49,593 bases of DNA from the NCBI GenBank assembly GCA_903873705.1, contig CAIQPK010000087.1, positions 1 to 49,593 on the forward strand. Reading direction: 5' to 3'. Positions within the stretch are counted from its first letter, which is position 1; each line of letters starts with the position of its first letter. The notes under the pieces are model-generated. The model did not search any database, was not told where the DNA came from, and saw only the letters and a program-made list of their open reading frames with translations. The position numbers and the translations under genes were made by a program. This document shows, in pieces, positions 16,842-23,610 of this stretch. Source of the DNA: an uncultured Acidobacteriota bacterium (GTDB taxonomy: Bacteria; Acidobacteriota; Terriglobia; Terriglobales; Acidobacteriaceae).

Positions 16842-16946
16842 CGTGTTGTACCAATTCAGGTCACGCGAGCTTTTTGTTCTGGACTTAGCCTCGGAAGCTG
16901 TTATTCTGCCTTCACCTGCTACTATTTACCCTTCGAGGCTTTCACT

Positions 16947-17111
16947 TTGAAAACGCTGAAGACCGCTCTTCCCGTCGTCCTCCTTACCCTGTGCGTTTCC
17001 ACTAAGGCGTTCGCGCTTGGAGTTCCAGAAGTCAGTCCCACAGACGGCCTTTCGGCCCTCGCTCTGGTAGCCGGTTCAGTCATGATCTTCCGTAGCCGTT
17101 TGAAGCGCAAG
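16947..17111 (+). other. VPEID-CTERM sorting-signal protein region lacking its own stop codon
   Basis: Encodes a 55-residue unit: basic start, hydrophobic signal peptide ending in AFA, the motif VPEVSPTDG at 26-34, a 15-residue hydrophobic helix (LSALALVAGSVMIF) and the basic tail RSRLKRK. This tripartite layout is that of VPEID-CTERM targets. Frames +1 and +2 would stop almost at once after the basic tail (TGA and TAG), so a one-base change could restore a free-standing small gene. The residues between it and Met74 (with two adjacent Cys) look like translated spacer. Confidence 0.7.
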
Positions 17112-18803
17112 CTCCATTCCTGCTGTCATAGGGGTGCCTGCGAACTCCATCGAGAGCCGTTACTTATGCCCGTCGCCGATGCCGATCTCGCCGGTGCAGC
17201 TTCATTGCCCTACAACACAACGCTAGCTGATTTGAAGGCGCCCAGCACCTTGCTCGGGCGCCTTTTCATCTTCGCTGCAATGTTGATGCTCCAATACGTC
17301 GCCATCGTGCTGGTTCCGCACCCGTGGTGCACCCTGCACCGCGTAGTCGCAGGAGCCATCGTCTTCCTCGGCGTCTTCCTTTTCATCGCGCGGACCAGCC
17401 TCGCTTTTCAGCCCGAATCCCTTCCCCTGAACCGGCGCCTGCTGACCCTCTACGCCGTCAGCCTCCTCATCATCGCCGCCGTCCATGCGGCCTTGCTCAC
17501 TGTGCTCGTCGGATCCAGCCTGGCCGTCGCGATTTGGTTCACAGCGATACCCCTATCGGCCGTCACGCTTTTCTACGCACTGATTCCCACCCCCGTCATC
17601 GCCATACTGTGGCGTCGCACGCGTCTTGCCGTGCTTTACGCCACACTGGCTGCCGGCCTCATCGTCGCCATCAGCGACCGCGTCCAGGCCGTGTGGGACG
17701 CGCCCCAATCCGCAGCCAGCCTCTTCCTCCAGCGCACCACCTTCCAGGTTGTCGACCACTCGCTCCGCCTCGTCTACCCCACCGTCCACGCTGACCCCGC
17801 CACCTTCACCATCAGCCTCCCCCGTTTCGACGTCACCATCGCCGGCAGCTGTTCGGGTATTGAAGGTCTTTCCCTCACGCTCATCCTCTGCATCGGTTGG
17901 CTCTGGTACGCGCGCCGCGAACTACGTCTGGCCCGCGCCATGCTCCTCGTGCCGTGCGCCCTGGCCCTCATTTGGACGCTCAACATCATCCGCATCGACG
18001 CTCTCCTGGCCCTCGCCAATGCCGGCTATCCCGAGATCGCAGCACACGGCTTCCACTCCGATGCAGGCTGGATTGCTTTCAACTTCGTCGCACTCACGTT
18101 TCTCGCTCTAGCCAACCGCTGGCAGTGGCTAGCCAGAAATCCCGCCACAAGGGCCACCCATGTTGACGCCCCAAACATGGCGGCCACCTACCTGCTACCC
18201 TTCCTCGCAATCCTCACTGCGGGCCTGGTTTCTAAAGCTGCTTCATCCGGTTTCGAGTGGGCCTACCCCCTCCGCTTCATCGCCGCAGCGGCCGTGCTCT
18301 GGCACTTCCGCGCAACCTACCGCCGTATGGATTGGACTGTCACCTGGCTCGCTCCTGCCACGGGCGCACTGGTCTTTGCCGTCTGGATTGCTTTCAGCCG
18401 CTGGACAGCATCTTCTGCGACCAACGAAATCGGAGCCACCCTTGCGACCATGCCTCCCGCCGCTCGACTCACCTGGCTGAGCCTGCGTGTCATGGCAGCC
18501 GTCGTTACGGTTCCCATCGCCGAAGAACTAGCGTTCCGTGGCTTCCTCCTGCGCCGCATCATCGCAACCGACATCGACTCCGTAGCCTACCCCTCGGTTA
18601 CACCGCTGGCCATCGCCATCTCCTCCGCAGCATTCGGCATGATGCACGGGCAGCAATGGCTCGCCGGCATTGCGGCAGGCGTCGCTTATGCTCTGCTGAC
18701 GAAGCGGACCGGCCGCCTCGCCGACGCAATCGCTGCCCACGCCACCACCAACCTCCTGCTGGCAGCCTGGGTACTCTCGCGGTCCGACTGGGGCCTCTGG
18801 TAA
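16947..18803 (+). CDS. xrtE: Exosortase E/protease fused in frame to an N-terminal VPEID-CTERM substrate-like segment
   Basis: 618 codons from TTG 16947 (GAGG about ten bases upstream). Residues 1-55 look like a complete VPEID-CTERM protein: a signal peptide (LPVVLLTLCVSTKAFA), VPEVSPTDG, a hydrophobic helix and a basic end RSRLKRK. A stretch of about 18 residues without similarity follows, then a second possible start at ATG 17166 (residue 74). The exosortase domain has GSCSGIEG (Cys302), NIIRI (Arg349) and HGFHSD (His367/370), matching the Cys-Arg-His triad. The C-terminal CPBP/Abi protease domain has EELAFRG (526-532), GMMHG (His567) and AHATTN (His598). In the known system the substrate is a separate small gene beside exosortase E. 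Here no stop separates them, so either a fusion or internal initiation at 17166 (545 residues) applies. Confidence 0.85.
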   Translation: MKTLKTALPVVLLTLCVSTKAFALGVPEVSPTDGLSALALVAGSVMIFRSRLKRKLHSCCHRGACELHREPLLMPVADADLAGAASLPYNTTLADLKAPSTLLGRLFIFAAMLMLQYVAIVLVPHPWCTLHRVVAGAIVFLGVFLFIARTSLAFQPESLPLNRRLLTLYAVSLLIIAAVHAALLTVLVGSSLAVAIWFTAIPLSAVTLFYALIPTPVIAILWRRTRLAVLYATLAAGLIVAISDRVQAVWDAPQSAASLFLQRTTFQVVDHSLRLVYPTVHADPATFTISLPRFDVTIAGSCSGIEGLSLTLILCIGWLWYARRELRLARAMLLVPCALALIWTLNIIRIDALLALANAGYPEIAAHGFHSDAGWIAFNFVALTFLALANRWQWLARNPATRATHVDAPNMAATYLLPFLAILTAGLVSKAASSGFEWAYPLRFIAAAAVLWHFRATYRRMDWTVTWLAPATGALVFAVWIAFSRWTASSATNEIGATLATMPPAARLTWLSLRVMAAVVTVPIAEELAFRGFLLRRIIATDIDSVAYPSVTPLAIAISSAAFGMMHGQQWLAGIAAGVAYALLTKRTGRLADAIAAHATTNLLLAAWVLSRSDWGLW

Positions 18804-18879: not shown

Positions 18880-19413
18880 CTATGCCCGGCGAATCCTGCG
18901 CCGCGCCGCCCCGATAGCCGCCACAACACCTGTGCCGCAAAGCATGATGGACGAAGGTTCTGGCGTTTGCACCAGGGACACAACCATGTTGAACGGCTGG
19001 TCGGATTCGTCGGTCACGATGCGCGTATTGCCGTGGAAGTCGGCGGCAACCAAACCGAACTGCACAATCCCAAGCGGGTCCAGTGTGATGATGTTTTCAT
19101 ACTGAGAAAGATTGTCCGTACCCGTAAACGTCAACGTCTTGGTGATGCCGTCAATCGTCACATCCTCCATAAAACTGAAGGAGATGATCGTTGTCAGCGT
19201 GCCAGAGTAGCCCGCCATGTAGGTGCCCACCTGGGAAACGGTCGAACCGCTGAAGCTCAACGTGAAGTTTTGTGTGCTGCCGGTATAAACCAACGTATCA
19301 GCGGCGGGGCTTAGATCAGCCGAAGCGCCCGCAAACGTGATGGTGTCGGCGTGGGCGGCGACGGAAAAAAACGCCGCACTTGAAATAGCCAAAACCGCGA
19401 GTAAGTGACGCAA
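18880..19413 (-). CDS. PEP-CTERM sorting domain protein
   Basis: 177 residues from TTG 19413, with a good GGAGG seven bases upstream. A signal peptide (LAVLAISSAAFFSVAAHA) comes first, followed by a 125-residue beta-rich, Thr/Ser-rich domain without a known family. The C-terminus is the sorting signal: TPEPSSIMLCGTGVVAAIG then ARRRIRR. An exosortase cuts at the PEP motif and releases or anchors the protein at the surface. The signal is PEP-type, not VPEID-type, so the exosortase E next door is probably not its processing enzyme; a second exosortase is expected elsewhere in the genome. Confidence 0.85.
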   Translation of the reverse strand: MRHLLAVLAISSAAFFSVAAHADTITFAGASADLSPAADTLVYTGSTQNFTLSFSGSTVSQVGTYMAGYSGTLTTIISFSFMEDVTIDGITKTLTFTGTDNLSQYENIITLDPLGIVQFGLVAADFHGNTRIVTDESDQPFNMVVSLVQTPEPSSIMLCGTGVVAAIGAARRRIRRA

Positions 19414-22836: not shown

Positions 22837-23610
22837 ATGACATCGCACAACATTACCCGCGTCCTCGCACGCACCGTTCGGGCCACATTGCTCACCTCTC
22901 TGGCCATGACCGCGATGGTCACCGCCGCGCACGCCACCAATCTCGTCACCAATGGCAGCTTTGAGCAGACCACCCTGCCCGGCAACTCCGGCATCGGAAG
23001 CGGCTTCAACAGCAACGCCGACAATGTCACCGGCTGGACCACCAGCGGCTACAACTTCGTTTACACCTCCGCCGCCGACGTTACGCCGGCCAATGGCGTC
23101 GAACTCTGGGGACCCGCTAACGGATCGGCCAACGGTCTCGGCGTATCGCCCGACGGCGGCAACTACGTCGCCATGGACGGCGCATACGGCGTCGGTGCAC
23201 TCTCGCAGATCATTAGCGGCCTCGTCATTGGCCAGCAGTACACCGTCAACTTCTACTTCGCCGGCGCCCAGCAGCACGGCTTCAACGGCAGCACCACCGA
23301 GCAGTTCGAAGTCAGCTTCGGAAGCGACCACCTCTTCACTCAGGTGCTCAACAATGCCAACCACGGCTTCACCGGCTGGCAGTCCGAGAGCTTCACCTAC
23401 ACCGCCAGCGCCACCTCCGAAACCCTCGCCTTCCTCGCCATCGGAACCCCCGACGGCGTCCCCCCGTTCTCCCTGCTCGATGGCGTCAGCCTTAACGCAG
23501 TAGCACCCACACCGGAGCCCGGCTCGCTCGCTCTCCTCGCCACCGGCCTCTTCGGCGTCGGCGGTATCGTGCGCTCGCGCTTCAGCAAGGCCACCGCAAA
23601 AAAAGCGTAA
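22837..23610 (+). CDS. PEP-CTERM protein with DUF642/choice-of-anchor-C-like domain
   Basis: 257 residues; AAGGAAG about nine bases upstream of the ATG. A long signal peptide (to about residue 33, AAHA) is followed by NLVTNGSFEQTTLPG and GWTTSGYN. This is the opening of DUF642-type, galactose-binding-like beta-sandwich proteins, and YVAMDGAYGVGALSQIISGLVIGQQYTVNFYFAG continues the pattern. The C-terminus is the sorting signal TPEPGSLALLATGLFGVGG then RSRFSK. Expected at the cell surface or in the matrix, possibly binding the exopolysaccharide. Its signal is PEP type, so it should be handled by a different exosortase from the one at 16947. Confidence 0.87.
   Translation: MTSHNITRVLARTVRATLLTSLAMTAMVTAAHATNLVTNGSFEQTTLPGNSGIGSGFNSNADNVTGWTTSGYNFVYTSAADVTPANGVELWGPANGSANGLGVSPDGGNYVAMDGAYGVGALSQIISGLVIGQQYTVNFYFAGAQQHGFNGSTTEQFEVSFGSDHLFTQVLNNANHGFTGWQSESFTYTASATSETLAFLAIGTPDGVPPFSLLDGVSLNAVAPTPEPGSLALLATGLFGVGGIVRSRFSKATAKKA

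What the first reader, a model, noticed from the sequence alone, without database searches (positions are those of the whole stretch)
16947..18803. VPEID-CTERM substrate apparently fused to its own exosortase E/protease
In known VPEID systems a small substrate gene lies next to exosortase E. Here a 55-residue segment with signal peptide, VPEVSPTDG, hydrophobic helix and basic tail is read straight into the exosortase with no stop, across about 18 residues that look like spacer. The exosortase triad (Cys302, Arg349, His367/370) and the CPBP EExxxR/His set all seem intact. If real, the enzyme carries its own recognition signal at its N-terminus and could cut itself free, act in cis, or make two products from starts at 16947 and 17166.
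Basis: partly seen in the sequence, partly recalled or inferred. Interest (0 to 1): 0.8.

Follow-up and report, generated by a model that had tools for sequence, protein, structure and literature searches.

The report
Sorting-signal gene joined to its enzyme
A tiny protein carrying a sorting signal and the membrane enzyme thought to cut that signal, normally two neighbouring genes, read as one continuous gene in this bacterium's assembly because the first gene's stop codon is missing; it looks like a one-off stop loss (or a sequencing error) rather than a new kind of enzyme.

Summary
Window 16947-18803 (+) is one open frame of 618 codons: a 54-55-residue VPEID-type sorting-signal protein, 18-19 linker codons, then a complete exosortase E/protease (TIGR04162, 210 bits, cut-off 150) with its conserved Cys302, Arg349, His370, Glu526/527, Arg531, His567, His598 and Asn602 intact. 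The reading as a self-carrying enzyme is only weakly supported. Four free-standing relatives of the small protein (68-81% identical) all end exactly after window residue 54, where the window has a sense codon (17109-17111). The enzyme has its own start at ATG 17166, shared with close homologues. In 66 of 87 other distinct enzyme loci I found a separate substrate gene within 1 kb upstream; 20 of those are same-frame with a single stop between. No other fusion turned up, but DNA of the closest homologues was out of reach. The linker reads like intergenic DNA. Best account: a one-codon stop loss in an ordinary tight gene pair, real or a sequencing error; reads are needed to tell which. It is the only clear VPEID-like substrate found in this genome.

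The parts
16934..16939 (+). ribosome-binding-site-like CGAGGC upstream of TTG 16947
   Evidence: duplex energy -5.9, at the 5% quantile of 500 random window positions
16947..17108 (+). VPEID-CTERM-type small substrate, 54 codons from TTG: signal peptide, VPEV, hydrophobic helix, basic tail
   Evidence: 68-81% identical to four free-standing proteins P0042-P0045; TIGR04161 16.8 bits, below cut-off 33
17109..17111 (+). sense codon at the place where all four free-standing close relatives end
   Evidence: alignment A3; sequence
17112..17165 (+). linker, reads like the former intergenic spacer
   Evidence: 17109-17165: codon log-odds -0.77 per codon (intergenic mean -0.71; in-frame enzyme stretches 5% quantile -0.10); GC3 0.53 against 0.76 in the enzyme
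17166..18803 (+). exosortase E/protease (exosortase domain plus CPBP/Rce1-like domain), own ATG start, 545 aa
   Evidence: TIGR04162 210 bits, PF09721, PF02517; database gene call P0002 starts here; start Met shared with close homologues

Best explanation
This is an ordinary exosortase E (XrtE)/VPEID-CTERM substrate-enzyme gene pair in which the stop codon of the small upstream gene is missing, so two genes that already lay in the same frame, 57 bases from the last shared substrate codon to the enzyme's ATG, read as one. Shown: the two parts, the place of the missing stop, the conserved separate start of the enzyme, and separate genes in relatives. Inferred: working enzyme is still made, either from ATG 17166 or as the N-terminally extended chain. 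The substrate's basic tail and the enzyme's N-terminus should both be cytoplasmic, so an extended chain should insert normally. The exosortase site (Cys302/Arg349/His370) would cut near VPEV as in the two-gene system, in trans or possibly in cis. The fused form is a lineage- or assembly-specific accident rather than a selected architecture. I put about two chances in three on a real substitution in this genome and one in three on a sequence error (a judgement, not a measurement).
For: Four free-standing relatives (68-81% identical) end exactly at window residue 54. P0042 and the enzyme homologue P0004 are both listed with 2 contigs, the longest 12017 bases, so they are probably neighbours (inferred). 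Close enzyme homologues start at or near the Met that is ATG 17166, for example P0005 MPVADPEQAG against MPVADADLAG. In 66 of 87 other distinct enzyme loci a separate substrate gene was found within 1 kb upstream, and in 20 of the 66 it is in the same frame with a single stop before an open enzyme frame, so one codon change would give a fusion (its 88 loci include the window's own copy L141). In the same-genus genome G203 (its locus L032 is identical over the tested stretch to L061, Granulicella sp. UBA5172) one TAA separates the two, with the enzyme's ATG the second codon after it. Linker composition is intergenic-like. No fused relative was found: 704 candidates for residues 1-80 gave none at E <= 10, and the motif scan flagged only the window and L121, which I dismissed.
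Against: No DNA was available upstream of the closest enzyme homologues P0003-P0018 (55-62% identical; metagenome scans were capped at zero), so a clade of fused genes near the window is not excluded. Gene callers would hide such fusions: the window's own record is called from ATG 17166, which also weakens the empty protein search. ATG 17166 has only a weak ribosome-binding site (-3.0, near the 25% quantile of random positions) while TTG 16947 has a better one (-5.9), so the extended chain may well be the main product. The substrate part itself is well conserved and its codon score favours the true frame, so it has not decayed.
Confidence: 0.8

Rival explanations
1. The missing stop is a sequencing or consensus error; the organism has two ordinary genes. 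(This is one branch of the best explanation, so its odds overlap with it.)
For: A single-codon difference at exactly the homologous stop position; intergenic-like linker; no fused relative found.
Against: The assembly is rated 100% complete with 1.56% contamination, and both reading frames are intact; P0002 is listed on 4 contigs, though whether those include the junction was not seen.
Confidence: 0.27
2. A real, selected fusion: the enzyme carries its own recognition signal, is displayed or activated by cutting itself, or fixes substrate and enzyme at 1:1.
For: All signal parts and catalytic residues are intact; the small protein is the only clear VPEID-like substrate found in the genome; hydrophobic segments and charges are compatible with it; good ribosome-binding site at the upstream start.
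Against: No second example; linker looks non-coding; separate start conserved.
Confidence: 0.1
3. Stop-codon readthrough of the substrate gene is a general way to make the enzyme in this family, and the window is a constitutive version of it.
For: 20 of 66 pairs are same-frame with one stop; in one of them, L035, the first 80 codons after the stop hold no ATG, GTG or TTG at all.
Against: Same frame is barely above one third (24 of 50 near pairs, p 0.035; 28 of 66 overall, p 0.12, uncorrected for kinship). 17 of the 20 have an ATG, GTG or TTG before the first helix; L042 and L095, which by my first rule had none, have GTG and ATG at its edge. In L034 and L035 likeness begins at a shared CTG five codons after the stop, where kin L138 and L139 have TTG, pointing to a rare start codon instead.
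Confidence: 0.05

Closest known systems
Exosortase E/protease with VPEID-CTERM substrate (TIGR04162 with TIGR04161) as adjacent genes, e.g. Granulicella sp. UBA5172 (L061/L032), Silvibacterium bohemicum S15 (L059), Terracidiphilus gabretensis S55 (L060)
   Same: same enzyme family, same tripartite substrate, substrate just upstream on the same strand
   Different: two genes with a stop between (same frame in L061, other frames in L059 and L060); here no stop
EpsH-CAAX protease fusions noted by Haft et al. 2006 (PMC1569441, passages read)
   Same: exosortase domain fused to a CAAX protease-like domain, as in residues 74-618 here
   Different: no substrate signal attached; [quoted passage not shown]
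JDVT-CTERM protease MrtJ / myxosortase family (NF033192, NF040914)
   Same: the CPBP part matches weakly (36 and 28 bits, below the cut-offs of 75 and 100)
   Different: the match covers the CPBP part only; those enzymes are named for other sorting signals

Membership tests
TIGR04162 exosortase E/protease | score above the curated cut-off over exosortase and protease parts | tested here: met
   210.1 bits against 150, residues 152-617
TIGR04162 exosortase E/protease | conserved Cys, Arg, His of the exosortase and EExxxR plus His of the CPBP part | tested here: met
   Cys302, Arg349, His370, Glu526/527, Arg531, His567 invariant, His598 and Asn602 nearly invariant in 31 sequences; their catalytic roles are family knowledge
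TIGR04161 VPEID-CTERM substrate | score above the curated cut-off | tested here: not met
   16.8 bits against 33; four free-standing close relatives also fall short, 14.7-20.5 bits, so I call it VPEID-type, not a certified member
TIGR04161 VPEID-CTERM substrate | signal at the C-terminus of its protein, ended by a stop after the basic tail | tested here: not met
   no stop; reads into the enzyme; the four relatives do end there
TIGR04161 VPEID-CTERM substrate | signal peptide, VPE motif, hydrophobic helix, basic tail, next to exosortase E | tested here: met
   sequence and helices (residues 1-95 are low-confidence in the model); such a gene lies within 1 kb upstream in 66 of 87 other loci
Self-processing substrate-enzyme fusion | conserved in more than one lineage | tested here: not met
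   none in 87 other loci (L121 flagged and dismissed) nor in the protein search; DNA of the closest kin not available
Self-processing substrate-enzyme fusion | cut in cis at VPEV | not testable with these tools
   structure model has residues 1-95 under pLDDT 50

The most novel reading that the evidence does not exclude
A real exosortase E that is born tethered to its only substrate: the substrate segment is nearly cargo-less (a few residues between signal peptide and VPEV), so the signal serves as a removable membrane lead or self-test of the enzyme, with the enzyme cutting its own N-terminus and the internal start at 17166 giving an unlabelled form.
Probability: 0.07. Interest if true: 0.6.

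Novelty: new variant of a known kind. Interest (0 to 1): 0.3.

Why it matters
If the fused chain is made, it pairs an exosortase with its substrate at 1:1 in a single polypeptide and gives a ready cis-cleavage assay for exosortase E. The listings I saw for exosortase E, VPEID and XrtE (20 of 26 papers listed) and for exosortase (30 of 75 listed) showed no paper whose title or abstract start is about this enzyme, and a profile search found no solved relative in the PDB at E <= 1. If it is only a lost stop, it matters as a caution: tight same-frame pairs of this kind can turn into apparent fusions by one codon change.

Tried and rejected
Indel at the junction: rejected as unneeded, since the alignment to the free-standing relatives has no gap from window residue 25 to 54 and the enzyme frame is intact. 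Three of the four relatives carry one or two extra residues before the VPE motif, far from the junction.

General readthrough: weighed through frame statistics and start codons in relatives. It is weak; a CTG or TTG start explains the odd loci better. My first list of three loci without a start codon shrank to one, L035, on recheck.

Hunting DNA of closer kin in whole genomes (28 genomes of the genus; 398 of the family; 80 of the genus of G177; 300 relatives; 397 of the order; overlapping sets) gave, apart from the own genome, at most 48% identity over most of the enzyme (G102) and up to 56% in partial matches.

Structure prediction for cis docking: enzyme modelled well, N-terminal 95 residues not. 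Alignment A4 with the small proteins added seemed to misplace them (invariant columns only in the enzyme part) and was not used.

Rows dropped: 5 loci with under 300 bases upstream (L039, L078, L085, L127, L136) and 2 where my motif rule did not locate the enzyme (L128, L146); loci with the same enzyme stretch counted once. 22 of the 88 had no substrate by my rule, L141 (the window itself) among them. L121 was flagged by the fusion scan and dismissed because it has its own separate substrate gene and the flagged stretch looks like the enzyme's own hydrophobic N-terminus.

Literature: seven searches ran. 'VPEID-CTERM' gave 0 papers and the stop-loss search 0. Nothing on a substrate-exosortase fusion showed in the listings (10 of 10; 39: 15 of 28; 42: 20 of 26; 43: 30 of 75; 51: 10 of 153). 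I read passages only of PMC1569441 and PMC11980579. The 2012 paper by Haft and others on archaeosortases is not held and I did not see it.

Full report
What is there. Window 16947-18803 (+) is a single open frame of 618 codons, 653 from stop to stop. Residues 74-618 are an exosortase E/protease: TIGR04162 at 210 bits (cut-off 150), PF09721 and PF02517 above their gathering scores. In an alignment of 31 sequences Cys302, Arg349, His370, Glu526, Glu527, Arg531 and His567 are invariant, and His598 and Asn602 nearly so. Residues 1-55 have a signal-peptide-like helix, VPEV at 26-29, a second helix and a basic tail. The TIGR04161 score is 16.8 bits, below its cut-off of 33. Free-standing relatives score 14.7-20.5, so the model is insensitive for this group.

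The junction. A search with the 55-residue segment returned four proteins, P0042-P0045, 68-81% identical, of 64, 55, 56 and 92 residues. All end with the same residues, matching window residue 54 (17106-17108). At the next codon, 17109-17111, the window has a sense codon and then stays open for 18 more codons to ATG 17166. That ATG is the start used in the database's own call of this gene (P0002, 545 aa) and corresponds to the start of close enzyme homologues such as P0005 (MPVADPEQAG against MPVADADLAG). P0042 and the enzyme homologue P0004 are both listed with 2 contigs, the longest 12017 bases, so they are probably neighbours; this is an inference.

The linker. Bases 17109-17165 have GC3 0.53 (enzyme 0.76) and a codon log-odds of -0.77 per codon. 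Intergenic stretches near the gene average -0.71, and 95% of equal-length in-frame stretches of the enzyme lie above -0.10. The enzyme is part of the training set of that score, so the contrast is somewhat flattering to it; the substrate part scores 0.06 in frame against -0.94 and -0.74 in the other two. An open run of 18 codons occurs in 68% of random places. The linker therefore looks like former spacer and its openness needs no explanation.

Relatives. In the family-wide genome search 20 of 398 genomes, the own one included, had a match at E <= 1e-40. In 18 distinct loci with a substrate, 11 substrates lay in the enzyme's frame and 8 of these had exactly one stop before an open enzyme frame. 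Adding 80 loci of named records and later genome hits, 88 distinct enzyme loci had at least 300 bases upstream; one of them, L141, is the window's own, leaving 87. In 66 a separate substrate lies within 1 kb upstream, 20 of them same-frame with a single stop. In 21 none was found by my motif rule, which is strict. Frame 0 is 28 of 66 (p 0.12) and 24 of 50 among the nearest pairs (p 0.035), not corrected for kinship, so same frame is common but not convincingly above chance. The same-genus relative (G203; its locus L032 is identical over the tested stretch to L061, Granulicella sp. UBA5172) has a single TAA, with the enzyme's ATG the second codon after it. A fusion scan flagged the window, as it should, and L121, which I dismissed because it has its own separate substrate. 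A protein search with residues 1-80 among proteins of the fused length had 704 candidates, none at E <= 10. This is weak as an absence test, because gene callers start at the internal ATG.

How it probably works. The established model, from family knowledge and the passages read in PMC1569441 and PMC11980579, is that a signal peptide exports the protein, the hydrophobic helix and basic tail hold it in the membrane, and the exosortase cuts at the signature motif. In the window the basic tail runs on into the enzyme's N-terminus. Both should be cytoplasmic, so the extended chain should be able to insert (inference from charge and hydrophobicity; the helix 31-58 did not pass my 19-residue hydrophobicity threshold there and rests on sequence likeness and the low-confidence model). 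TTG 16947 has a good ribosome-binding site (-5.9) and ATG 17166 a weak one (-3.0), so both forms, or mainly the extended one, could be made. Cutting at VPEV in trans or in cis would free the enzyme of the signal peptide. With only a few residues between the signal peptide and VPEV there is almost no cargo to release; P0042-P0045 look equally minimal.

The genome. The segment is the only clear VPEID-like substrate found in the genome: other matches to TIGR04161 or to P0044 were at chance level. The genome has three other exosortase-family genes over the PF09721 cut-off; the matched stretches of two pass XrtJ, and the third scores best with XrtD and XrtA but under their cut-offs. The PEP-CTERM-type proteins near the window gene presumably belong to those.

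What I could not settle. Whether the sense codon is real needs reads. No DNA of the closest enzyme homologues (55-62% identical) could be fetched. The structure model gives no placement of residues 1-95.

Verdict. Observation confirmed. Fusion by loss of one stop codon in a standard gene pair, real or artefact, is the best account. A functional self-carrying enzyme is possible but unsupported beyond the open frame itself.

Noticed in passing
L035 and kin L034, L138, L139, L050, L082: In L035 the first 80 codons after the substrate stop hold no ATG/GTG/TTG, though the exosortase frame follows; L034 and L035 share a CTG, and L138, L139, L050 and L082 have a TTG, as fifth codon after the substrate stop. 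Suggests a rare-start or reinitiation control of exosortase E.
   Followed up: partly
L033, L034, L035, L139, about 38-71 bases into the exosortase frame: Inverted repeat GGGAG-6 bases-CTCCC near the start of the exosortase frame; perfect 9-bp stems in L035 and L139 with one paired change, imperfect outer pairs in L033 and L034. Absent by that pattern in L036, L138, L042, L043, L046 and L050.
   Followed up: partly
L002/L045 (G136): At least six VPEID-type substrate genes lie in tandem upstream of one exosortase E.
   Followed up: no
P0042-P0045 and window 16947-17108: Substrates of this clade are nearly cargo-less: signal peptide followed almost directly by the sorting motif, so their role as surface proteins is unclear.
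   Followed up: no
window 18880-19413 (-) and 22837-23610 (+): Two PEP-CTERM-type proteins (TPEP motif) near the exosortase E gene; the second passes the PEP-CTERM cut-offs, the first falls just short. The genome has three other exosortase-family genes.
   Followed up: no
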